From contig JAUNKV010000030.1 of NCBI GenBank assembly GCA_030532575.1, positions 1 through 36,675 on the forward strand: a stretch of DNA of 36,675 bases, written 5' to 3'. This DNA is from Propionibacteriaceae bacterium. GTDB taxonomy: Bacteria; Actinomycetota; Actinomycetes; Propionibacteriales; Propionibacteriaceae. Under the pieces are notes generated by a model. That model saw nothing but the letters and a program-made list of their open reading frames with translations. It ran no database searches and was not told where the DNA came from. The position numbers were made by a program, and so were the translations under genes. Numbering within the stretch: position 1 is the stretch's first letter; every line of letters starts with the position of its first letter. Positions 1 through 16,454 of the stretch are shown here, piece by piece.

Positions 1-1724
1 TGTTCGTGGCCGTCAACGGGCAACCGCTGCGCAGCGTGGAATGGTTCGGGGACCAACGGGTCTCCGCGGTGGTGGCCCTCGAACGGCTTGCGAATTCCAA
101 GCCTGACGGGGTCTACCCCGTGGTGGACCCGGCCCGGTTGGGTGAGGCAGCTGCCGCGCTGAGGGCTGAGGGGATTGGTGTCACTGTGACCGAGGCCTCC
201 GTGCTCGACACGGTACGGTCGCTGGTCTCGGTCTCACAGAGCGGTTTCATGGCTCCGGTCGCGGCAGCTGCTCTGCTCGTGGCAGCTCTCACGGTGTTCT
301 GGCTTGCAGCCAAGGCCAGGTCCCGCGCACTACGGGTGCTGGCCGGGGGCTCACCGTGGCGCATCCAGGCCCAGGACATCGGAGGGTATCTGCTGTATCT
401 GGTGGGCAGCGCTGTTCTGGTCGGGCTGCTGTGCTGTGGGTTCGTCGGGTTTTCTCGTGGCTGGTTCCAGGTTCCGCTCTTCGCCCAAGCGATGGTCTTC
501 TTCGAGATCGTCGCCTTCGTGCTGTGCGGGGTCGTGATCCTCCTGCTGTCGGTGGTGGCCTGGCCCAGCGCAGCACTCTTCGCCACCCGAAAACCTGCGG
601 TGACGATGCTGCAGGGGCCAGCTTGCATCGTCCAGGTGGTGACGCTGTTTGCCCTGGTTGCTTCTGCAGGGCCAGCGTGGCTGGCTGCCCAGGAGGCGGA
701 GCAGAGCGCCCGACAGCTTGCAACGTGGTATGAGTTCTCGGATCAGGTCATGTTGGGCTTCGAGATGGCCCTAGATGATCTCGATGTTGTGGCGAATCGG
801 GTCCAGCAGGCAGTGTCCAGTGCTGAATCCGAAGGCCAGGTCGTCATGTCTTACACCATCAAGGAAACGGACTGGTCCGCTGATTTTGGGCCCTACTCGG
901 CAGTTTCCATCGTCAACTCCGGTTGGATCAATCTCGTCTCGAAATCGGTTGGACATGATGCGCTCGTTCCGGTTTCCCAGGAGCAGGAGATGTTGATGGT
1001 CCGACAGGAGCTGCGTGATTCGTGGGTTATCTGGAACAGAAACGCGCATTCCGAAGGAGAGGTTCTGGCAAGCCTCAAATTTCATGTTCCAGCCGCAGGA
1101 GTGGCATACCCGGTGGCTGATGGCGGCAAGCCGGGGCAACTGAGTTTCCTGAACGATGTCCTGGTGATCGAGGTCCCGACGATTGATGCCGTATTTGATC
1201 CGCCAAACCTCGTCAGCCTCGCTTCCACCGGAAATGTTCTACTGACGGGAGTGGCTGAGACGAACGAGCTGCTGAAGGAGGCCGGGCTGGATGAGGCCGG
1301 GTTGGCCGAGCTGGGTGTGGATGGAGCGATCCGTCCGCTGTATGCGGCGGAGCAGGGCATCCTGCGAGCACAGTTCGCAGCTCACCTGGCGCGCATCCTG
1401 ACTGTCGCCGTGGCGGCCATGACAGCTGCCTTCATCGTCGCTGCCGGGGTGAACGCAGTGATCGCAGCCCTGCTCAACACCCGCCGTGACTTCCCGATGC
1501 GGCTGAGTGGTGCGACATGGGAGCAGGTGACCCGGCCACGTGCCCGCCGCGAGCTGATCCTTGGCGTCGTGGTGGTGGCTGTGGTCCTGTTCCTCCAGCT
1601 GGGGACCCCTGCGGCTCTGCTCGCGACGGCGGTCGCGGGGGTTGCAGGGCTGGCCGTGCTGTACCTTGCCCATGCTGCTGCCGCCGCGACGATCTTTACC
1701 CGCATCACGCGCCGAAAGCTCTAG
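1..1724 (+). CDS. Bacteriocin-associated ABC permease (DUF1430-like), 5' end outside window
   Basis: The reading frame is open from the first complete codon (position 3), so the true start lies upstream and about 573 residues are visible. Hydrophobic segments fall near residues 80-100, 126-150, 158-185 and 203-227. A soluble, probably extracytoplasmic, domain of about 230 residues follows, then three more membrane segments near 462-490, 515-535 and 540-565. This four-plus-loop-plus-three layout matches the bacteriocin-associated integral membrane proteins (DUF1430 type) that work with lactococcin-972-group ATPases. The ATPase gene starts 15 nt downstream behind a strong GGAAGGAG ribosome site, so the two form one exporter or immunity pump. 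The loop-coding part (about 720-1100) is visibly AT-richer than nearby genes, which suggests transfer. The matching bacteriocin gene, if present, should lie upstream of the window. The family assignment rests on topology and partner. Confidence 0.75.
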   Translation, partial: FVAVNGQPLRSVEWFGDQRVSAVVALERLANSKPDGVYPVVDPARLGEAAAALRAEGIGVTVTEASVLDTVRSLVSVSQSGFMAPVAAAALLVAALTVFWLAAKARSRALRVLAGGSPWRIQAQDIGGYLLYLVGSAVLVGLLCCGFVGFSRGWFQVPLFAQAMVFFEIVAFVLCGVVILLLSVVAWPSAALFATRKPAVTMLQGPACIVQVVTLFALVASAGPAWLAAQEAEQSARQLATWYEFSDQVMLGFEMALDDLDVVANRVQQAVSSAESEGQVVMSYTIKETDWSADFGPYSAVSIVNSGWINLVSKSVGHDALVPVSQEQEMLMVRQELRDSWVIWNRNAHSEGEVLASLKFHVPAAGVAYPVADGGKPGQLSFLNDVLVIEVPTIDAVFDPPNLVSLASTGNVLLTGVAETNELLKEAGLDEAGLAELGVDGAIRPLYAAEQGILRAQFAAHLARILTVAVAAMTAAFIVAAGVNAVIAALLNTRRDFPMRLSGATWEQVTRPRARRELILGVVVVAVVLFLQLGTPAALLATAVAGVAGLAVLYLAHAAAAATIFTRITRRKL

Positions 1725-1739
1725 GAAGGAGCGAGAACC

Positions 1740-2387
1740 ATGCTCATCGAAGCCCATGACGTCGGAGTCAAGATCGGCCAGAAGCAGATCATCGCGGGGG
1801 AGTCCGTGCGGTGTGTGCCCGGGGTGATGACCGCCCTGATCGGGCCGTCGGGATCCGGCAAGACCACCCTGCTGCACACCCTCGGGCTGCTGTTGCCACC
1901 CAGCAAGGGCAAGGTGACTGCCGATGGGGTGGTGATCTCAGGGGGAAGTGCGCGGGCCTGTCGCGCTTTCTGGCGGGATCATGCTGCCTTCGTGCTGCAG
2001 GACTACGGGATCATCGACGACGAATCGGTGGCCTTCAACGTCACCCTGCGTCGAGGAAGTGGAACCTCTGAGCTGAAGGCCGTGTTGGAGCATGTTGGCC
2101 TGGCGGGGCGGGAGGACGAGCTGGCCAGCCATCTCTCCGGCGGGGAGAAGCAACGCCTCGCCCTGGCTCGCGCCATTCACCGTGATGCCCAGGTGCTCTT
2201 CGTGGACGAGCCGACGGCCTCGTTGGATGCGGCGAACCGTCGCCTGGTGGTGGAACTGTTCGCCGATTTCGCAGCCAAAGGAGCCACAGTCGTCATCGCC
2301 ACGCACGATGATGAGATGATCGCGGCCTGCCAACAGCATCATCAGATGAACAGCTCCCTGGCTGGAAGAGAGCAAAGGGCTTCATGA
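1740..2387 (+). CDS. ABC transporter ATP-binding protein, lactococcin-972 exporter group
   Basis: This 215-residue ATPase is compact, as is usual for the lactococcin-972 export and MacB/LolD-like groups. The Walker A motif GPSGSGKTT lies near residues 36-44. The signature LSGGEKQR and the Walker B VLFVDEP follow near 130-160, and the switch histidine is in ATHDDE. The Q-loop reads FVLQDYGIIDDESV. It should energise the membrane protein encoded just upstream, and together they would export or expel a small bacteriocin. The ATG is preceded by GGAAGGAG at good spacing. The ATPase at 10795-11436 is a distant relative within this window, so two peptide-type ABC systems lie about 8 kb apart. The cargo cannot be read from this sequence. 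Confidence 0.85.
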   Translation: MLIEAHDVGVKIGQKQIIAGESVRCVPGVMTALIGPSGSGKTTLLHTLGLLLPPSKGKVTADGVVISGGSARACRAFWRDHAAFVLQDYGIIDDESVAFNVTLRRGSGTSELKAVLEHVGLAGREDELASHLSGGEKQRLALARAIHRDAQVLFVDEPTASLDAANRRLVVELFADFAAKGATVVIATHDDEMIAACQQHHQMNSSLAGREQRAS

Positions 2388-2551: not shown

Positions 2552-3055
2552 GTGCCTACTGCTGCATGTCGGTACTGGAGGGGGACGCTGTCGTTCGAGG
2601 AGATCTACACACAGCATTACGCTTCGCTGCTGGCAACTGTTGAGAGGAGGGTCAACTCAAAAGATGACGCTGAGGAGATTGTAGCTGAGGTTTTCAGGGT
2701 TGCGTGGGGGTACCATTGCTCTGGAGGAGTTCTCGAGGTGCCTTGGCTCTTTGCGACTGCAAGAAATCTGATAGGGAACGAGTACCGAGCTCGGCGTAGA
2801 AGGGCTGCGTTGCAGGCCAAGATTACTCTGAACTGTTTAGCTCAGGCGCAGGGCTGTGATGGAGCGAGTGGGGTTCGAGAAGCAGTTGACTGCTTGTGTG
2901 AGCAGCATCGAGAGGTTCTTGTGCTTGCCTATTGGCAAGGGTTGAAGGCTACGGAAATTGCCTCGCTGTTGGATGTCTCTGCGGAGACTGTGCGCGCTCG
3001 GCTGGCTCGGGCGAGGAAGAACCTACGAACGATCCTGGAGGATCGGCAGCCGTGA
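2552..3055 (+). CDS. RNA polymerase sigma-70 family (ECF-like) factor
   Basis: The protein is 167 residues if read from GTG 2552. Region 2 is seen as FEEIYTQHYASLLATVERRV followed by DDAEEIVAEVFRVAW. Region 4 is the helix-turn-helix REVLVLAYWQGLKATEIA leading into VSAETVRARLARARKNL. There is no long C-terminal extension. The start is uncertain: GTG 2552 has no clear ribosome site and adds 12 residues not typical of the family. A CTG at 2588 sits 5 nt after GGAGGGG and would begin at LSFEEIY, exactly where such factors usually start. Codon use is AT-richer than the neighbourhood. An ATG opens 2 nt after the stop, in the position expected for an anti-sigma or target gene, but it runs only 21 codons before a rearrangement junction. 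Target promoters are unknown. Confidence 0.8.
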   Translation: MPTAACRYWRGTLSFEEIYTQHYASLLATVERRVNSKDDAEEIVAEVFRVAWGYHCSGGVLEVPWLFATARNLIGNEYRARRRRAALQAKITLNCLAQAQGCDGASGVREAVDCLCEQHREVLVLAYWQGLKATEIASLLDVSAETVRARLARARKNLRTILEDRQP

Positions 3056-3578
3056 CCATGCTGGAATCAAGTGGGGGAAACCTGCTTGGGCAAGCGGTTT
3101 CCTCCAGAAGGCGCTCGAAGTAGTCCTCACCGAGGAAGGGGCCGTTCTCCATCCGTTTCCGGTCGATGACGTAACCCCTGAGAGCGAAGTCCCGCAGCAC
3201 CCGGGTGGCCCACTGCCGGAACTGGGTGGCGCGCACCGAGTTGACCCGGTAGCCCACCGAGATGATGGCGTCGAGGTTGTAGTGGTCGATTCCGCGCTCC
3301 ACCCGGCGTGACCCTTCGGCTCGAACCATCCGGATTTTCCGGATGGTTGCCTCCCGCTCCAACTCACCGGTGGCGTAGATGTTGCCCAGGTGCTCACTGA
3401 CAGTACGGACATCGACACCGAACAGCTCAGCCATCAGCCGCTGGGTCAGCCACACCGTCTCATCCTCGTAGCGCGCCTCGATGCTCTCCCCACCGTCCTG
3501 GGCGGTGAAGATCAAGAACTCCACGGTGGAGTTGCGGATCAGCTGGCCCGGGGGCCGGGAGGGACCGTCGTCGTGCAT
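2949..3578 (-). pseudogene. RhuM-family protein, truncated at the 3' end
   Basis: Residues 20-160 match the RhuM (virulence/Fic-associated) family as I know it: WLTQRLMAELFGVDVRTVSE, then HLGNIYATGELE, TIRKIRMVRAEGSRRV, YNLDAIISVGYRVNS, TQFRQWATRVLRDF and GEDYFERLLE. Normal members run to roughly 330 residues and continue with a conserved helical region after LLERI. Here similarity stops at about residue 160 (near position 3098). The remaining 49 residues are only the antisense of the sigma-factor end. The gene is therefore a fragment whose 3' half was lost at a junction with the sigma locus. RhuM genes commonly sit in mobile or defence islands, and their biochemical role is not established. 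The start ATG at 3578 is the first convincing one. Confidence 0.75.
3058..3123 (+). pseudogene. Possible remnant of the gene downstream of the sigma factor
   Basis: An ATG begins two bases after the sigma-factor stop and reads 21 codons to TAG. From about position 3098 it lies over the sequence antisense to the RhuM-like gene. Only the first 13 or so codons can be original. It could be the severed beginning of an anti-sigma or regulated gene, or simply chance. No family is recognisable. Confidence 0.25.
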
Positions 3579-7809: not shown

Positions 7810-8799
7810 TCAATGCAGCTCGGCCTCGGTGTACTCGGTGCCCGCCAGGTCGGTCCAGGTGATCTTGCCGTTGCAGTCGTAGCGCACCGTCGGGGAGACC
7901 TTCTCGAAGCGCGAGTCGATCTCGACGCTGCACGGTTTGGTCTCGTCGGGGCTGTGCTTCTCGATGGCCCGGGCCAGCACCAGGGGATCGATCTTGGCGG
8001 GGTCGAAGGGGGTTCGGCTGCTGCCCTCGCTGCGTCGGGTCACATAGACGGGCAGCGCCCCCATGCGGGAGCGTCGCTCCGTCACCCCAGAGCTGGGGGG
8101 CAGGTCCAGCCAGTAGCCGGTGTTGGGGTTGAAGCCGACCTGGGCGGCAGCCCTGGCGCCCGCCACGACCTCCTTCAGCCCCTGGGTGATGTCGGCGACG
8201 GAACGGAAACCGAGGGTGCGCACCGCTTCGCCCCTGCGGGTGAAGAAAACGGTGCTGGTCTCGGGGCTGGTGGTGACGGTCATGTACACCTCGCCGGGGC
8301 GGTACTCCACGATTTGCAGCACCTTCTGGTCGCCCGTGGCTCCCAGCTCCTCGGCGGTGTCGAAGATCGCCGCGATGTTGGAAAGGGGAAAATCGGAGGG
8401 CTGGAAGGTGGTCTGGTTCAGGTAGGTCACATCGGAGTCGGCCCGGGAGATCATCCCGTCGCGCCACCGCAGGGTGAGCAGCTGCTTCTGCCGGTCCAGC
8501 AGGGTGATGACCAGTTCGGTTCTTGAGACATCCAGTTTGATCGCGGGCAGGCTGCCGTAGAGGGTGTTGAGGTGTTTCAGCACCGTCTCGGCCCCGCCGT
8601 GGGTGAGGTCTCTGGCCAGCGGGAGCCTCACCGGCAGTGAAGGGCTGGGGGAGGGGCTGGGTGTGGCGGTTGTCGGGGAGGCTGAGGACGCCGTCGCAGT
8701 GGGGGCGGCAGAGGTGGAGGGTGGGGCCTCGGGGGCCTGGGGGGAGCATCCCGCGAGCAACGCGAACACCACGACGGTGGCGGCGCGGGACATCTTCAC
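7810..8799 (-). CDS. Secreted lipoprotein of unknown function
   Basis: The protein has 329 residues. The signal MKMSRAATVVVFALLAGC ends in the lipobox LLAGC (Cys18). A Pro/Ser/Thr/Ala-rich linker of about 40 residues follows, then a domain of about 270 residues beginning near LPLARDLTHGGAETVLKHLN. The C-terminal part contains two cysteines (PCSVEIDSRFEKVSPTVRYD, then CNGKITW) that could pair. I do not recognise the domain; overall it resembles actinobacterial lipoproteins that anchor a sensor or substrate-binding-like fold on the outer face of the membrane. GTG 8799 is preferred over GTG 8805 and ATG 8793 because TAGAAT ends exactly 6 nt upstream (leaderless pattern). Confidence 0.75.
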   Translation of the reverse strand: MKMSRAATVVVFALLAGCSPQAPEAPPSTSAAPTATASSASPTTATPSPSPSPSLPVRLPLARDLTHGGAETVLKHLNTLYGSLPAIKLDVSRTELVITLLDRQKQLLTLRWRDGMISRADSDVTYLNQTTFQPSDFPLSNIAAIFDTAEELGATGDQKVLQIVEYRPGEVYMTVTTSPETSTVFFTRRGEAVRTLGFRSVADITQGLKEVVAGARAAAQVGFNPNTGYWLDLPPSSGVTERRSRMGALPVYVTRRSEGSSRTPFDPAKIDPLVLARAIEKHSPDETKPCSVEIDSRFEKVSPTVRYDCNGKITWTDLAGTEYTEAELH

Positions 8800-8805
8800 C
8801 CCCAC

Positions 8806-9712: not shown

Positions 9713-10798
9713 TCACGCGGTGCGCATCACGGACACCGGGTCCCGGTTCGCTGCGAGTACCGCGGGTGGGATCGCCGCCAGCAGGGCGGTCAGACAGGCC
9801 AGCACCGCGACGGCGAGGGCGAAGTCCAGACCCGGGACCTGGCTCCAGATCGCGCCCAGCCCGAGTCCCAGGGCCAGCCCGGCAGCGGCACCGAGACCGG
9901 CGGGGACGGCGGTGCGCAGCGCGACCAAGGCGACGAGATCGGCGCGGGTGATGCCGAGGGTGCGCCGTCGGCCGAGGTCACGGCGTCGGATCAGCACATC
10001 GGCCAGCACCACGACGGCGACGAAGAAACCCCCGGCCCCCAGGATCAACAGCAGCAGGGAACGGCCGAACCCGGTGACCTGCCGCTCCACGAGCTGTCCG
10101 GCCGCAGCCGCGGCCAGCGGGGAGTCCACGCTGAGCTTGTTCGCCCCCGCAGCCACGATGCCGAGAGCCGCATTCTGGGTGGCGGCGGCGACCTCGATGC
10201 CTGCGGAGATGGTCTTCACCTGACGCAGCGGCTGGTCGTCGCTCACCGTGGTCACGGCCATGCTCGCCAATTCCTGAAAAGGTGTCTGAGGGGTGAAGGT
10301 CCCGACGATGGCCCACTGGTGGCCGTTCGGGCCGTTCAGGAAACCGACGGGCTCGGCCAGTCCGAGCCTGCGCTGCACCTCGACGGAGACCACGGCCTCC
10401 CCGGGGGTGCGGGGCAGGCGGCCACGGGTGAGGGTGACGGCGCGTTCGATGTCGCCGACGAGCCCGACGAGCGCCACCTTGGGGTCCCCCACCGCGCCGT
10501 TGACCACGTCGACGGGGGTGTTGCTGCCGACAACCGCCTCGACGGTGGACAGGTTCCGCAGCACGGCCACGGCGGCGGGGTTGAGGGTCTTGGAGCCGTT
10601 GACATCGGTCACGGTCAGGGTCCGGGCGCTCGGGCCTGCCAGGTCGCGGGCCAGGTCGGCCTCGAGTGCTGCCTGACGGCCGACGGTGATGAGGGCCACG
10701 CACGCCGTCGCCGCGACGACGAGGGCCACGAGGGCGCTGGGGACGGGGGAGCAACGGGCGGCGGCGAAGGCCTCGCGGAGCAGATCGACGGGTCTCAC
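9713..10798 (-). CDS. MacB/FtsX-like ABC transporter permease
   Basis: The permease has 361 residues. One membrane segment lies near residues 20-42 ([20 protein letters not shown]). An extracytoplasmic domain of about 190 residues follows, then three segments near 243-270, 295-320 and 325-350. This is the topology of MacB/FtsX-type permeases that extrude or move substrates on the outer face of the membrane. The C-terminal block [20 protein letters not shown] is the usual coupling loop of the family. The start GTG overlaps the ATPase stop by 4 nt, so translation is probably coupled. It is the last gene of the six-gene operon 14187-9713. The likely job is export of, or defence against, a peptide together with the ATPase and the peptidoglycan-binding partner. 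Confidence 0.85.
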
Positions 10799-11436
10799 AG
10801 GCTCAGCACCTCGTCGGCTCGGGCCACGACGGTGGGGTCGTGGGTGGCGACGACCACGGTTCGGCCCTCCGCGGCGGCCTCGGCGAGGGCGTCGAGGACC
10901 AGGGTGGAGTTGTCCGGGTCGAGGTTGCCGGTGGGCTCGTCGGCCAGCACGATGCCGGGCGAGTTGACCAGAGCCCGGCAGATCGCCACGCGCTGCGCCT
11001 GCCCGCCGGAGATCTGGCCGGGACGGTGGTCGGCGCGTTCGGCCAGCCCGAAGCGGGTGAGCAGGTCGCGGGCGCGGGTGCGCAGCTCGTCGCGGTCGGC
11101 CCCGGCGTAGAGGCCGGGCTCGGTCACCGAGTCGAGGATGATGCGGGACGGGTCGAGCTCGGAGTCCTGGAAGACGAAACCGATGCGGGTGGCTCGCAGC
11201 TGTGCGCGCTGGTGGTCGGGCAGGGTGGAGGCCACCTCGTCGCCGATGGTGACCGTGCCGACGGAGGGGGTGAGCATGAGCCCCAGCACGTACAGCAGTG
11301 TGGACTTGCCGCGCCCGGAGGCCCCGGTGAGGGCGGTGACCGCACCCGGGGTGAACCGGTGGGTCAGGCCGTCGAAGAGTTCGGTCTGTCCCTTGGCGTA
11401 GGCGAAACGCAGGTCGTCGACGCTGAGGGTGGTCAT
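10795..11436 (-). CDS. ABC transporter ATP-binding protein (MacB/LolD-like)
   Basis: The protein has 213 residues from ATG 11436 ([11 protein letters not shown]). Upstream in-frame codons lie over the neighbouring gene and give Arg/His-rich nonsense, so a longer start is rejected. Walker A is GASGRGKST (about 36-44). The Q-loop is [14 protein letters not shown], the signature is ISGGQAQR and Walker B is IVLADEP, followed by TGNLD; the switch histidine is in ATHDP. The ATG overlaps the stop of the peptidoglycan-binding gene (ATGA), and its own stop overlaps the permease start (GTGA). It powers the permease encoded next to it. Confidence 0.9.
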
Positions 11437-12494
11437 GACGGGGAGGACTCCGGTGTGGGGGTGGCCGACCCGAGGAGGCGCACCTGCTCCCCGGCGGTCA
11501 CGCCGTCCACCACGGCGAGCCCTTCGGCGACGGTGCGGATGGTGACCGTGCGTTGCTCGTCGCCGCTGCTGGTCACGACGGTGACGGTGGTGGTGGCATC
11601 CGGTTGGGTGGTGAGGGCGGCGACGGGGACGACCGGCCCGGTCTCCGGCGGGATGATCTGGACGTCGGTGAGGAGGTTGGCCTTGCCGGGTAGCGCGGCG
11701 CACTGGTCACCGCACAGCAGGGTGCCGTCCTGGGCGGTGATGGGGACGCTCACGCCCTGGTCGTTCGGGATGTGCTCGCCGGTGATGCCTTCCCAGGTGT
11801 GGTCGCCGTGGCGAACCTTCACGGTGGTCTGGGGTGGGACGAGCTCGGCCTGCTGTGGGGTGAGCACCATCGCGAAGGTGGGGTCGCCGCTCGTGGCGCG
11901 CACCACGACCTCGCCCCCGGCCAGGGCGGCACCGGGCCACAGCAGAGTGCCATCGAGGGTGACCTGGGTGGGCAGGGTGGGCACGGCCACCAGCTCGCCC
12001 AGGGCCATCGCCCCGGTCTCGGGTTGGCCTGCGGCCTTCTGCCAGGCCCGCATCGCGGCGGTGGTGGAGGAGCGCCACTGCCCGTCGGGGGTCTCGGTGG
12101 TGTGCCCGGCAGCGACGAGGGCCGCCTGCACCTGTGTGACGTCCGGTCCGCTGTCGCCCTCCCCGAGGGGGCGGTGGAAGGGGGTGGTGCCTGCGATGAC
12201 CCGCACTGCCACCCCGTCGACGGCGTACAGCACGTCGCCGTTGGTCACCTCACCGCCGGGACCAACAGCGGTGACGGTGCCGTCGAGTCGGTTGACGGCT
12301 GCCGGTGCACCGGCGCGCTCGACGGTGGTGCTGAGGGTCAGCACCCGGCCGAGTTGCTTCTCCACCACCTCGACGGTCACCGACGAGGTGTCGGCCTGGC
12401 CGGTCGCCTGGGGCGGGGAAAGGGTGACCCGCCCGGCCCAGAAACCGGCTGCTGCGGCCAGCACGACGGAGCCAACGATGAGTGCCTTCTTCAT
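11433..12494 (-). CDS. Membrane-anchored peptidoglycan-binding, HlyD/MacA-like adaptor
   Basis: The protein has 353 residues. An N-terminal anchor (residues 4-24) is followed by a short beta-rich part with VNRLDGTVTAVGPGGEVTNG, typical of a membrane-fusion lipoyl/barrel half. Next is a PG_binding_1-type helical domain (about 112-157, with GDSGPDVTQVQAALVAAG and MRAWQKAAG), then a C-terminal beta-barrel region resembling HlyD-family adaptors. A CGDQC motif lies near residues 261-265. Proteins of this kind replace MacA in Gram-positive ABC systems and tie the pump to the cell wall. The ATG directly abuts the preceding lipoprotein stop (TGAATG) with GGAGG just upstream. The 3' end overlaps the ATPase start by 4 nt. 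Confidence 0.8.
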   Translation of the reverse strand: MKKALIVGSVVLAAAAGFWAGRVTLSPPQATGQADTSSVTVEVVEKQLGRVLTLSTTVERAGAPAAVNRLDGTVTAVGPGGEVTNGDVLYAVDGVAVRVIAGTTPFHRPLGEGDSGPDVTQVQAALVAAGHTTETPDGQWRSSTTAAMRAWQKAAGQPETGAMALGELVAVPTLPTQVTLDGTLLWPGAALAGGEVVVRATSGDPTFAMVLTPQQAELVPPQTTVKVRHGDHTWEGITGEHIPNDQGVSVPITAQDGTLLCGDQCAALPGKANLLTDVQIIPPETGPVVPVAALTTQPDATTTVTVVTSSGDEQRTVTIRTVAEGLAVVDGVTAGEQVRLLGSATPTPESSPS

Positions 12495-13181
12495 TCATCC
12501 TCCATACAGGGCTTTGTCAGGTGGGAGTTCAGGGCAGGCCTTGGATACATTGTCAGGGACTGCGGTATCCCGGGGGTAGGGCCACCAGGGGTCGCTGTCC
12601 GGGTCGTTGAAGGTGGCGATGTAGACGTCGCGGGTGGGTTTGTCCTTCTCGTTGACGGGCTGATCGTGGGCTTTCATGCAGGGAATGTAGTACTGCTCAA
12701 AGTAGTCGTAGAGCAGTGCAAGTTGTTCCTCGTTGTATTCGTCATAGAAACGTGGGTCCAAGCTGTATTGTGCTTGGCACACATAGACGGCGGTGGCGAG
12801 TGGTTCATCCTGTTCTTCTGGAATGCCGCCGCCCGGGAAGGAGACGCCTCTGAGGCCTGCTTCGGCTGGGAAGCCTTGATCGGTGAGGCATTGGGCGATT
12901 GTCTTCATGTGTTCTTCGGTGCCTTCGATCCAGCGGATCAATTCCACATCTTTGGGTGAGGTGTCGCTCGGTTCGATGTGTTTCAGGAAGTCAGCACGAA
13001 TGGCCCAGCGTTCTTCCTCGGTGAAGGTCTTGGGGGTGACCTTCACGGTTGGCTCCCACGCCTTGGGGTCCCAGGTCTGGGGGGTACTGGTGGGTGCGCT
13101 GGGTTCTGGTGGGGGTGTGCAGCTGGTCAAGCCGAGGCTGCACACCCCCACCAGGAGAGCTGCGAGGTGGGTTCTGGTCAT
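12495..13181 (-). CDS. Paralogous cysteine-containing lipoprotein, copy 2
   Basis: The protein has 228 residues. The lipobox LTSC places the lipid Cys at residue 21, followed by a short Pro/Ser/Thr linker. The mature domain starts at TWDPKAWEPTVKVTPKTFTE and carries four conserved cysteines: in AQCLTDQGF, YVCQAQYSLDPR, YYIPCMKAH and SKACPELPP. It ends WWPYPRDTAVPDNVSKACPE, LPPDKALYGG. It is clearly a duplicate of the gene just upstream (13184-13873): both share the TFTEEERW, DYFEQYYIPCMKAH and DTAVPDNVSKACP blocks, and the last 55 or so bases are nearly identical in DNA. I know no named family. Position between a secreted two-cysteine protein and a pump suggests an immunity, receptor or folding role. 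ATG 13181 gives a clean signal peptide. Confidence 0.8.
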   Translation of the reverse strand: MTRTHLAALLVGVCSLGLTSCTPPPEPSAPTSTPQTWDPKAWEPTVKVTPKTFTEEERWAIRADFLKHIEPSDTSPKDVELIRWIEGTEEHMKTIAQCLTDQGFPAEAGLRGVSFPGGGIPEEQDEPLATAVYVCQAQYSLDPRFYDEYNEEQLALLYDYFEQYYIPCMKAHDQPVNEKDKPTRDVYIATFNDPDSDPWWPYPRDTAVPDNVSKACPELPPDKALYGG

Positions 13182-13183
13182 CG

Positions 13184-13873
13184 TCAGCTGCCGTAGAGAG
13201 CCTTGTCGGGAGGTAGGTCTGGACAAGCCTTGGATACATTGTCAGGGACTGCGGTATCCCGGGGGTAGGGCCACCAGCGTCCTTCTTCCGTGGTGAAGAA
13301 GGTCGAGACGTAGGTCTCGCGGGAGGGCTTCCCGTCTTCCACCACTGGCTGGTTGTGTGCCTTCATGCAGGGGATGTAGTACTGCTCGAAGTAGTCGTAG
13401 ACCAGTCGTATCTGGTCCTCGGACCAGTCGCCTTCAAGGCGCGGGTCCAAGCTGTACTGGGCTTCGCACGTGTAGCTGGCCACGTCGAAAGCGGGAAGCT
13501 GGCTTTCTGGGATTCCCTCTCCGAGGTCTGGTTCTCTGGGGCCGGGGGTCACGTCAAAACCGGCGTCATTCAGGCACTTCGAGATGGTGGTTGAGTAGTC
13601 CTCGTAACTTTGGGTCCAGCGGATGAACTCCACTTCCGGTACTGGCCCTGTCGTTGGCTCTTTGTGCTTGAGCCACTCAGCGCGGGCAGCCCAGCGTTCC
13701 TCCTCGGTGAAGGTCTTGGGGGTGATCTTCACGGTTGGTTCCCACAGGTTGGGGTCCCAGGTCTGAGGTGCGGTGCTGCTGGGGGAGGCGCTGGGCCCCG
13801 ACGGGGGCGTGCAGCCAACCAAGCCGAGGCTGCACACCACCGTCAAGGCAGCGAGAGCTACGGACAACCTCAT
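13184..13873 (-). CDS. Paralogous cysteine-containing lipoprotein, copy 1
   Basis: The protein has 229 residues. The signal MRLSVALAALTVVCSLGLVG ends at lipobox Cys21. The mature domain begins TWDPNLWEPTVKITPKTFTE and has the same four-cysteine pattern as copy 2 (SKCLNDAGF, YTCEAQYSLDPR, YYIPCMKAH, SKACPDLPP). The centre diverges from copy 2 (TTGPVPEVEFIRWTQSYEDY against DTSPKDVELIRWIEGTEEHM), so the pair is not simply a recent duplication along its whole length. The start overlaps the stop of the small secreted protein gene (ATGA), and the stop is 2 nt before copy 2, so all three are translationally coupled. The lipid anchor puts it on the outer membrane face, where it would meet the secreted protein. 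Confidence 0.8.
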   Translation of the reverse strand: MRLSVALAALTVVCSLGLVGCTPPSGPSASPSSTAPQTWDPNLWEPTVKITPKTFTEEERWAARAEWLKHKEPTTGPVPEVEFIRWTQSYEDYSTTISKCLNDAGFDVTPGPREPDLGEGIPESQLPAFDVASYTCEAQYSLDPRLEGDWSEDQIRLVYDYFEQYYIPCMKAHNQPVVEDGKPSRETYVSTFFTTEEGRWWPYPRDTAVPDNVSKACPDLPPDKALYGS

Positions 13874-14187
13874 GCTGGTGGGGTGCAGTATCCGTAGCTG
13901 CCAGACCGCAGGAGGGTGTAGGCGCTCGCTGACCAGTTGGTCACCCTGGCGTACGAGTGGCCGTGTCCGACGTAGGAGTTGCTGCCCCTGTAGACCACGC
14001 GGGATCCGATCTTGAGGACAAGTGCTCCTCTGTTGAGCCGCTGCATCTCTCCGCGCACGGACACGGTTGCTCCGCCGCCCGAGCAGTTCTGTCGCCCGTA
14101 TTCAGTGTAGGCTTGGGCGGGCGTGGCCATCGAGCCGAACAGCATGGCGGCTGCCGCGAGGGCGATGAGTCGCTTCTTCGTCTTCAT
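13870..14187 (-). CDS. Small secreted two-cysteine protein, possible bacteriocin-like cargo
   Basis: The protein has 105 residues. The signal peptide MKTKKRLIALAAAAMLFGSM ends ATPAQA (cleavage after residue 26). The mature 79 residues begin YTEYGRQNC and end SGSYGYCTPPA. The only two cysteines (mature positions 9 and 75) sit near the two ends, as if a disulphide closes the chain. The middle is Gly-, Ser-, Tyr- and Arg-rich with IGSRVVYRGSNSYVGHGHSY and no acidic patch, so the mature protein is basic. I do not recognise a family; the layout is loosely like lactococcin-972 proteins but their conserved motifs are absent. ATG 14187 is chosen over TTG 14193 and GTG 14190 because GGAG lies 9 nt upstream. 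It is the first gene of the exporter operon. Confidence 0.75.
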   Translation of the reverse strand: MKTKKRLIALAAAAMLFGSMATPAQAYTEYGRQNCSGGGATVSVRGEMQRLNRGALVLKIGSRVVYRGSNSYVGHGHSYARVTNWSASAYTLLRSGSYGYCTPPA

Positions 14188-14220
14188 CACCAATCACTCC
14201 TTTGGTAGTTGGGTGGCAGC

Positions 14221-14226
14221 AGCCTA
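14221..14226 (-). promoter_or_regulatory. Candidate -10 element of the secreted-protein/exporter operon
   Basis: On the minus strand TAGGCT lies 33 nt before ATG 14187, giving a leader of about 26 nt that holds AGGAG. The AT-rich stretch 14285-14300 further upstream may also matter, but its TTGTCA and TATAAC hexamers are only 11 nt apart. Confidence 0.4.
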
Positions 14227-14315
14227 GCAGCCGGTGACTCCCTGGGGAAGGGGTTTCGGCGAAGAGGTGCCGAAGTCTACCCGAAAGTTATATTTTTCCG
14301 CACTGACAAGGGGTT

Positions 14316-15493: not shown

Positions 15494-15585
15494 AAGGGGA
15501 CACCAAAGCCAGGGCATCTCAGCAGACTCCCGCTGGTCGAGCTTCAGCGCCCCGGCGCCCGACAGCCGAGACTGCTCCTCCTTCC

Positions 15586-15762
15586 CGCTGGTCGAGCCGG
15601 GCCCGGAATTCTACGGAGGGCCCGTGTCGAGACCCCTGGCATCCGGTGCAGAGTCTTTCGCCGAGTGGGGTTGGTCTGGGGTCAAGTCCCTGCGGATGGT
15701 CACGGGGTCTCGACACGGGATTCCCTCGCTGCCGCATCGGGAAATCCCGGCTCGACCAGCGG
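15586..15762. repeat. Family A unit 1
   Basis: Left palindrome CGCTGGTCGAGC to GTCGAGACC with stem CGGGCCC/GGGCCCG, a 90-nt spacer, then the inverted palindrome GGTCTCGAC to GCTCGACCAGCGG. 177 bp. Confidence 0.85.
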
Positions 15763-15769
15763 GGGGTTC

Positions 15770-15938
15770 CGCTGGTCGAGCCGAGGGCGCTCAGCGCCCG
15801 ACAGTCGAGACCCCTGGCGCCTGGTGCTGGGTCTTTCGCCGAGTGGGGATGCTCTGGGTCCAAGTCCCTGCGCAAGGTTGCGGGGTCTCGACGCGGGATT
15901 CCCTCGCTTCGCATCGGGATTCCCGGCTCGACCAGCGG
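15770..15938. repeat. Family A unit 2
   Basis: 169 bp. The left stem is GGGCGCT/AGCGCCC and the right stem is GGGATTCCC paired with CGGGATTCCCGG-type sequence. The spacer is the same as in unit 1 with scattered changes. Confidence 0.85.
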
Positions 15939-16018
15939 AGAAAAGGTCCGGCTCGACCAGCGGATACCCCCGCTGGCCGTGGGGTCCAGTACCCGAGTGT
16001 CGAGGCTGTCCCGTTTTC

Positions 16019-16188
16019 CGCTGGTCGAGCCGAGGGCCGTCTGCGGCCCGACAGTCGAGACCCCAGGCGCCTGGTGCTGGGTCTTGCGCTGAGCGGGGTT
16101 GGCTTGGGGTCGGGGTCCTGCGGATGGTTGCGGGGTCTCGACACGGGATTCCCTCGTTTCGCATCGGGATTCCCGGTGTGAGCAGCGG
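16019..16188. repeat. Family A unit 3
   Basis: 170 bp. The left stem is GGGCCG/CGGCCC. The right end reads GTGTGAGCAGCGG instead of GCTCGACCAGCGG. Confidence 0.85.
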
Positions 16189-16243
16189 ATACCCCCGCTG
16201 GTCGTGGGGTCCAGTACCCGAGTGTCGAGGCTGTCCCGTTTTC

Positions 16244-16412
16244 CGCTGGTCGAGCCGAGGGCGCTCTGCGCCCGACAGTCGAGACCCCTGGCGCCCGGTG
16301 CAGAGTCTTTCGCCGAGTGGGGATGCTCTGGGGTCGGGGTCCTGCGGATGGTTGCGGGGTCTCGACACGGGATTCCCTCGCTTCGCATCGGGAATCCCGG
16401 TGTGAGCAGCGG
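16244..16412. repeat. Family A unit 4
   Basis: 169 bp. The left stem is GGGCGC/GCGCCC and the right stem is the perfect GGGATTCCC/GGGAATCCC. It shares the variant GTGTGAGCAGCGG end with unit 3. Confidence 0.85.
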
Positions 16413-16454
16413 AGAAAGGCTCAGTTCGACCACGGGAATACAGCAAGCGGTGGA

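What the first reader, a model, noticed from the sequence alone, without database searches (positions are those of the whole stretch)
9713..14187. Six-gene secreted-protein, twin-lipoprotein and wall-anchored exporter operon
Seen: six minus-strand genes joined by overlaps or gaps of 0-2 nt, encoding a secreted two-Cys protein, two paralogous lipoproteins, a peptidoglycan-binding adaptor, an ABC ATPase and a MacB/FtsX permease. Known: MacB-type pumps with MacA-like adaptors export or expel peptides and antibiotics. Inference: the small protein is the cargo or target, the lipoproteins give immunity or assist folding through cysteines, and the pump is tied to the wall. I know no named system with this gene set. 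This is the strongest candidate here for an undescribed system.
Basis: partly seen in the sequence, partly recalled or inferred. Interest (0 to 1): 0.85.

Follow-up and report, generated by a model that had tools for sequence, protein, structure and literature searches.

The report
Bacteriocin-like cassette beside an export pump
An Arachnia-like bacterium carries an operon that pairs a small, fast-changing secreted protein with membrane-anchored partners and a cell-wall-linked pump; the pattern looks like a swappable antibacterial protein plus self-protection, but no activity has been shown.

Summary
The six-gene operon is real. It encodes a Sec-type secreted two-cysteine protein (mature about 79 aa, net charge +7), two acidic lipoproteins, a peptidoglycan-binding adaptor, an ABC ATPase and an FtsX/MacB-type permease. 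Adaptor, ATPase and permease match known families; the small protein and lipoproteins do not. Lipoprotein plus transporter recurs in other genera and families. By a fixed rule, a two-cysteine secreted protein lies beside the lipoprotein in 25 of 52 transporter-plus-lipoprotein loci and in 1 of 22 lipoprotein-only loci. Between the window and strain L003 the signal peptide (85%), transporter and most flanks (89-96%) are conserved, but the mature small protein (32%) and lipoproteins (56%, 70%) are not. Small gene and first lipoprotein gene together resemble strain L002, while permease, ATPase and several flanking genes resemble L003. This fits a Sec-exported bacteriocin-like protein with a cognate immunity lipoprotein on a MacAB/YknXYZ-like pump. 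Killing, immunity and transport are inferred. It does not match lactococcin 972 by sequence. Eight searches of a held open-access library showed no named system with this gene set.

The parts
13870..14187 (-). small secreted protein: signal peptide plus mature ~79 aa, two Cys, net charge +7, pI 9.9
   Evidence: no Pfam family at E<=1, no NCBIfam family over cut-off
13184..13873 (-). lipoprotein A (lipobox Cys21), acidic (net -17), four further Cys invariant in a 17-sequence alignment; 4-nt overlap with the small gene
12495..13181 (-). lipoprotein B, paralogue of A (62% identical), ATG at 13181; closer to the two L003 lipoproteins (69-70%) than to A or L002
11433..12494 (-). MacA/YknX-like adaptor with N-terminal hydrophobic segment, PG_binding_1 domain and two Cys (CxxxC) invariant in 14 aligned adaptors
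10795..11436 (-). ABC ATPase of the MacB/LolD/FtsE type
9713..10798 (-). FtsX/MacB-type permease, four hydrophobic segments by a simple hydropathy count
   Evidence: PDB matches MacB 5gko and 5xu1 chain M
14188..14315 (-). leader region upstream of the operon, well conserved between window and L003 (promoter expected here; none recognised)
   Evidence: alignment

Best explanation
A bacteriocin-type competition operon with a swappable effector/immunity pair. The small protein is made with a Sec signal peptide, secreted, and closed by a disulfide between its two ends (inferred). It acts on close relatives (inferred). The lipoprotein encoded in an overlapping gene sits on the outer face of the membrane, is strongly acidic, and binds and neutralises the matching, mostly basic, small protein (inferred). 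Adaptor, ATPase and permease form a MacAB/YknXYZ-like machine anchored to peptidoglycan that drives the protein away from the membrane into or beyond the wall, giving self-protection and perhaps aiding release (inferred from family). The second lipoprotein is probably a retained immunity gene for another variant (inferred). Shown here: the gene set, its recurrence, divergence concentrated in the mature small protein and the lipoproteins, and joint exchange of small protein and lipoprotein A among three strains.
For: Linkage: 7 of 7 small-protein genomes have a lipoprotein match within 140 bp. Secreted two-Cys ORFs by a fixed rule: 28 in 156 kb near lipoproteins, 3 in 580 kb elsewhere in the same 56 loci (three of the 28 look spurious and the rule was shaped on these loci). 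In 20 later loci of another family: 3 near, 0 far, all 3 within the 4 loci that have a transporter. Overall 25 of 52 transporter-plus-lipoprotein loci against 1 of 22 lipoprotein-only loci, Fisher p 3.4e-4. Slot logic: small-lipo-small-lipo in L046, three tandem small genes in L083, the pair downstream of the permease in L057, L059 and L113, on the opposite strand in L092. Divergence: window versus L003, signal peptide 85%, mature part 32%, lipoproteins 56% and 70%; transporter and the other flanking genes compared 89-96%, except the lipoprotein-like gene at 7810-8805, 76%. Exchange: site patterns favour window+L002 for small (92:32) and lipoA (150:45), window+L003 for permease (40:177), ATPase (21:66), AlkD-like (35:102), MsrA (10:37) and a CoA-transferase-like gene (51:103). 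Partial Mantel small-lipo given transporter 0.29, p 0.004, 23 loci. Charge: 23 of 28 small proteins net positive, 22 of 22 lipoproteins net negative. Precedents: propionicin T1, a Sec-processed bacteriocin with an ABC transporter gene just downstream proposed as immunity (PMC5756557, passages); YknWXYZ protects against the SDP toxin (PMC4887032, passages).
Against: No activity data. By the fixed rule 27 of 52 transporter-plus-lipoprotein loci have no small protein (L041 and L087 have one by eye; the one in L043 appears frame-broken). In a second family 16 of 20 examined lipoprotein loci have no transporter. dN/dS of the small gene is below 1 (0.66, 0.35) and dS is raised too, so positive selection is not shown. 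Not all flanks argue for window+L003: in Ung the largest class (59 sites) joins L002 with L003, Nudix is 40 against 39, and the adaptor is mixed, 56:68. Small-protein distances also follow the permease (Mantel 0.26, p 0.002). The small-protein types do not match each other by profile (best 18% over 15 columns), though the profiles are shallow. Acidic lipoproteins may be generic. The structure model is poor (pLDDT 53.7).
Confidence: 0.5

Rival explanations
1. Assisted secretion: after Sec export the small protein is handed by the lipoprotein, as a chaperone, to the MacAB-like machine, which moves it through the wall to the surface. The protein could be a signal, adhesin or inhibitor rather than a toxin.
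For: PG_binding_1 in the window adaptor; small protein found mainly where the transporter is (25 of 52 versus 1 of 22); paired evolution with the lipoprotein also fits a chaperone; MacAB-TolC is implicated in enterotoxin secretion in E. coli (PMC4887032, passage).
Against: About half of the transporter-plus-lipoprotein loci have no cargo recognised by the rule; two lipoproteins for one small protein in the window and L003; small-protein types without detectable mutual similarity.
Confidence: 0.2
2. Defence or sensing module: lipoprotein plus pump protect against foreign antimicrobial peptides, and the small protein is a secreted decoy or co-sensor.
For: Response-regulator-like genes (judged by eye from the sequence, not by a family search, not counted systematically) near L051, L054, L056 and L174 and an annotated two-component pair beside the related transporter in L114; lipoprotein-plus-pump without small protein is common; S. 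pneumoniae Spr0693-0695 contributes to LL-37 resistance (PMC5768738, passages).
Against: None was seen by eye or in the family scans among the genes next to the window operon; the small gene is first in the operon, overlaps the lipoprotein gene, and the two were exchanged together.
Confidence: 0.17
3. The small protein is a cell-envelope structural or wall-maturation factor and the pump an FtsEX-like regulator of wall enzymes; variation is drift.
For: FtsX-like permease, FtsE-like ATPase scores and PG-binding domain.
Against: Patchy presence (7 of 197 genomes for the small protein), cassette exchange, tandem copies (L083) and several dissimilar small-protein types.
Confidence: 0.08

Closest known systems
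Lactococcin 972 clusters (PF09683 bacteriocin with a large permease and a TIGR03608-like ATPase)
   Same: Small protein with a signal peptide encoded beside an ABC transporter; PF09683 genes occur in the same genome and in 14 of 197 family genomes, and the transporter part of one cluster lies at window 3-2387.
   Different: The small protein does not match PF09683 nor a profile of nine Lcn972-like ORFs (hhalign probability 0.2%); here there are lipoproteins, a PG-binding adaptor and an FtsX permease instead of the ~650 aa permease.
Propionicin T1 / thoenicin 447 (Propionibacterium thoenii)
   Same: Sec-processed 96-aa precursor with an ABC transporter gene 68 nt downstream proposed to give immunity (review PMC5756557, passages).
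YknWXYZ of Bacillus
   Same: MacA-like adaptor, separate ATPase and MacB-like permease; protects against the SDP toxin (PMC4887032, passages).
   Different: YknW is a Yip1-family protein, not a lipoprotein; the toxin is the sdpC product, not described there as part of the operon; no PG-binding domain is mentioned in the passages.
Spr0693-0694-0695 of Streptococcus pneumoniae (MacAB-like)
   Same: Adaptor, ATPase and permease; chain 5xu1_M, a permease, is a sequence match to ours (E 6.8e-4; that 5xu1 is this system is recalled).
   Different: Our adaptor finds no PDB chain at E<=0.01 and carries PG_binding_1; no linked small protein or lipoprotein is described in the passages read.

Membership tests
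Lactococcin 972 family | match to PF09683 | tested here: not met
   no Pfam hit at E<=1 for the window protein; PF09683 not among hits of 10 relatives at E<=10; profile comparison probability 0.2%
Lactococcin 972 family | large bacteriocin-associated permease plus TIGR03608 ATPase | tested here: not met
   ATPase 153.4 bits versus cut-off 254.85; permease is a 361-aa FtsX protein
MacAB/YknXYZ-like transporter | MacB-type permease (FtsX domain) with an ATPase | tested here: met
   PF02687 E 3.4e-8, PF00005 E 3.9e-27; MacB match in PDB
MacAB/YknXYZ-like transporter | MacA-type adaptor with alpha-hairpin, lipoyl and barrel domains | tested here: inconclusive
   only a C-terminal RND_mfp match below cut-off (E 0.0093); PG_binding_1 present; no structure obtained
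MacAB/YknXYZ-like transporter | expels or exports peptides or proteins from the extracytoplasmic side | not testable with these tools
   needs experiment
Bacteriocin with cognate immunity | secreted small protein linked to, and inherited with, a specific partner gene | tested here: met
   linkage; joint exchange in one three-strain case
Bacteriocin with cognate immunity | kills relatives; partner protects producer | not testable with these tools
   needs experiment
Propionicin T1 type | sequence homology of the mature peptide | not tested
   sequence not at hand (paper not held)

The most novel reading that the evidence does not exclude
An undescribed, recurrent actinobacterial competition system: a conserved peptidoglycan-anchored MacAB-like pump with one or more interchangeable pairs of a hypervariable disulfide-closed secreted protein and its acidic lipoprotein immunity partner, where several unrelated small-protein families occupy the same slot and immunity genes are kept after toxin loss.
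Probability: 0.4. Interest if true: 0.75.

Novelty: new variant of a known kind. Interest (0 to 1): 0.6.

Why it matters
If right, it gives a recognisable genomic signature for a class of protein bacteriocins that family-based annotation misses, with partner lipoproteins as candidate immunity determinants in actinobacteria. It would also suggest a function for PG-binding MacAB-like pumps that are annotated only as generic ABC transporters (for example in L114).

Tried and rejected
Lactococcin 972 homology: rejected by Pfam and profile comparison. Chance run of genes: rejected by recurrence. Fold of the small protein: not settled; the model has low confidence (mean pLDDT 53.7), so no fold claim is made. 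PDB sequence relatives of the lipoprotein and small-protein profiles: none credible. Plasmid search with the L083 lipoprotein: no match. Small-protein profile in 245 genomes of the order: 9 matched, the 7 strong ones being those already found beside lipoproteins; of the two weak ones, G114 has no lipoprotein or transporter match in the 12 kb fetched and G167 was not examined. Literature: searches showed no named system with this gene set; I saw listings and abstract starts only, except passages of three papers.

Rows dropped or chosen: three fragment rows of the 60 adaptor places before the count; L173 (no full set) of 24 loci, with one small protein per locus used; the gene at 7810-8805, whose count (68:531) looks like a frame-shift artefact of my L002 start; three ORFs judged spurious (L046 at 8372, L175 at 9496 and 9896). 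The 20 regions were the best distinct ones by E-value among 70 places in 40 of 179 genomes, leaving out G530, already seen.

Limits: loci are not independent (L041/L042 and L057/L059 are near-identical; window, L002 and L003 are close relatives). Of the 22 lipoprotein-only loci, L042, L181 and L189 are cut by contig ends inside or beside the transporter; without them it is 0 of 19. Large searches score only part of the first-look candidates, so absences are uncertain. Signal peptides, ribosome sites and genes were judged by my own simple rules and gene caller, which misplaces some starts. The names Ung and MsrA for neighbours are by eye, not from a family search.

Full report
What is there. 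The window (36,675 bp) is contig C57 of a 3.19 Mb genome in 75 contigs. The nearest named loci are two strains titled Arachnia propionica; genomes with contigs of the same lengths count as the same genus. Six minus-strand genes at 14187-9713 form a tight unit with 4-nt overlaps or 0-2 nt gaps. They encode a 105-aa secreted protein, two lipoproteins (229 and 228 aa), a 353-aa adaptor with PG_binding_1, a 213-aa ABC ATPase and a 361-aa FtsX-type permease. The small protein and lipoproteins match no Pfam or NCBIfam model over its cut-off.

Recurrence. In 197 Propionibacteriaceae genomes (own included) the small protein has a match in 7 and lipoprotein A in 26; all 7 have a lipoprotein match within 140 bp of the small one. 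With an alignment of 17 lipoproteins, 33 of 197 genomes match at 52 places; with 14 adaptors, 40 of 197 match at 60 places. Of the 52 lipoprotein places 43 lie within 4.5 kb of an adaptor; of 57 adaptor places (three fragments dropped) 37 lie near a lipoprotein. The lipoprotein also occurs in three other families of the class (11 of 394 genomes in all, own included, at E<=1e-6; about 7 candidates per genome scored).

The small-protein slot. Looking around lipoproteins by eye and by rule showed other small secreted proteins of about 100-120 aa with a cysteine soon after the signal peptide and one near the C-terminus. A fixed rule (85-135 aa, signal-like start with a ribosome site, a Cys between residues 25 and 61, a last Cys within 20 of the end) finds 28 within 1 kb of lipoproteins in 156 kb and 3 elsewhere in 580 kb of the same 56 loci. 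Three of the 28 look spurious, and the rule was shaped on these loci. On 20 later loci from another family it finds 3 near and 0 far; all three are among the four loci with a transporter. Over all 76 loci, 25 of 52 with transporter and lipoprotein have such a protein, and 1 of 22 with lipoprotein only (L189, whose contig ends inside the adaptor); Fisher p 3.4e-4. Two further loci, L179 and L188, have a transporter without a lipoprotein match. The small-protein types show no convincing relation by profile comparison (0.3-3%; 18% over 15 columns), though the profiles are shallow: probably one slot, several families. The pair lies upstream of the adaptor, downstream of the permease (L057, L059, L113), or on the opposite strand (L092). 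L046 has small-lipo-small-lipo (its second small protein has one mature Cys and fails the rule), and L083 has three tandem small genes.

Divergence and exchange. Against L003 the transporter and flanking genes compared are 89-96% identical in protein, except the lipoprotein-like gene at 7810-8805 (76%). The small protein's signal peptide is 85% identical but its mature part 32%; the lipoproteins are 56% and 70%. Nucleotide identity to L003 is mostly 45-78% between about 14170 and 12800, with an island of 84-86% at the lipoA/lipoB junction, and mostly 82-98% on either side. Three-strain site patterns reverse for the pair: small 92 sites for window+L002 against 32 for window+L003, lipoprotein A 150:45 (139:42 against the other L003 lipoprotein); but permease 40:177, ATPase 21:66, AlkD-like 35:102, CoA-transferase-like 51:103, MsrA 10:37, Nudix 19:40, Ung 9:21. 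Not all is clean: the adaptor is mixed (56:68), in Ung most informative sites (59) join L002 with L003, and in Nudix 39 do. The simplest reading is that small protein and lipoprotein A were exchanged together relative to a resident transporter, with a boundary in or near the adaptor gene. Across 23 loci small-protein distances follow lipoprotein distances beyond the mean transporter distance (partial Mantel 0.29, p 0.004); they also follow the permease (0.26) and adaptor (0.17) but not the ATPase. dN/dS of the small gene is 0.66 against L003 (the highest of the genes compared) and 0.35 against L002 (second to the gene at 7810-8805); dS is raised too, so exchange is the safer reading than positive selection.

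Chemistry. The window small protein is basic (+7, pI 9.9) and the lipoproteins acidic (-17 and -20). Of 28 small proteins 23 are net positive; of 22 lipoproteins 22 are net negative (mature ends set by a simple rule). Besides the lipobox Cys, four Cys (C100, C136, C169, C217) are invariant in 17 lipoproteins; C261 and C265 are invariant in 14 adaptors.

Mechanism. Best supported: a Sec-secreted bacteriocin-like protein, a cognate membrane-anchored lipoprotein that neutralises it, and a peptidoglycan-anchored MacAB-like pump that clears it from the cell surface. Killing, binding and pumping are inferred from co-inheritance, charge and precedent: propionicin T1 (Sec-processed, ABC transporter gene downstream proposed for immunity; PMC5756557, passages), YknWXYZ and the SDP toxin (PMC4887032, passages), Spr0693-0695 and LL-37 (PMC5768738, passages). 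The second lipoprotein would be an orphan immunity gene. The main rival is assisted secretion through the wall; searches do not separate it from immunity.

What weakens it. 27 of 52 transporter-plus-lipoprotein loci lack a small protein by rule (L041 and L087 have one by eye; L043's appears frame-broken). In the second family 16 of 20 examined lipoprotein loci have no transporter, so the lipoprotein family has members outside this system. The fold of the small protein is unresolved: a beta-rich model with mean pLDDT 53.7.

Known or new. It is not lactococcin 972 by sequence, although that system is present in the same genome: two PF09683 genes on contig C69, and a truncated large permease plus ATPase at window 3-2387, with the bacteriocin gene expected beyond the contig start, as in L195 and L198. 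The pump belongs to the MacB type by permease and ATPase sequence; adaptor membership is inconclusive. Eight literature searches showed no system with this gene set; most subscription papers are not held.

Noticed in passing
window 3-2387 (+): Truncated large permease (no family match) and ATPase of lactococcin 972 type (best NCBIfam hit TIGR03608, below cut-off). In L195 and L198 a PF09683 gene lies just upstream, so here it probably falls off the contig start. The genome has two further PF09683 genes on contig C69.
   Followed up: partly
window 15530-16422: Intergenic block of imperfect direct repeats (families of 43-182 nt, 2-4 copies, spacing mostly 178-250 nt) between the MsrA-like and Ung-like genes.
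   Followed up: partly
window 2949-3578 (-): Gene matching the first third of the RhuM model (PF13310), perhaps a fragment.
   Followed up: no
window 7810-8805 (-): Lipoprotein-like gene without a family match that also diverges faster than its neighbours (76% identity to L003; the L002 value rests on an uncertain start).
   Followed up: no
L041 587-5950 and L042: A second, divergent adaptor/ATPase/permease-like set with a lipoprotein-like gene and two-component-like genes (by eye) lies beside the small-lipo-pump operon.
   Followed up: no
L226 6562-9399: Four tandem lipoproteins of the same family with no adaptor or permease match in the fetched 17 kb, in another actinobacterial family.
   Followed up: no
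L182 2342-2809 and L179 7834-8304: A different, similar-looking pair of 155-156 aa secreted proteins near the same kind of transporter; no Pfam family for the L182 one at E<=0.001.
   Followed up: no
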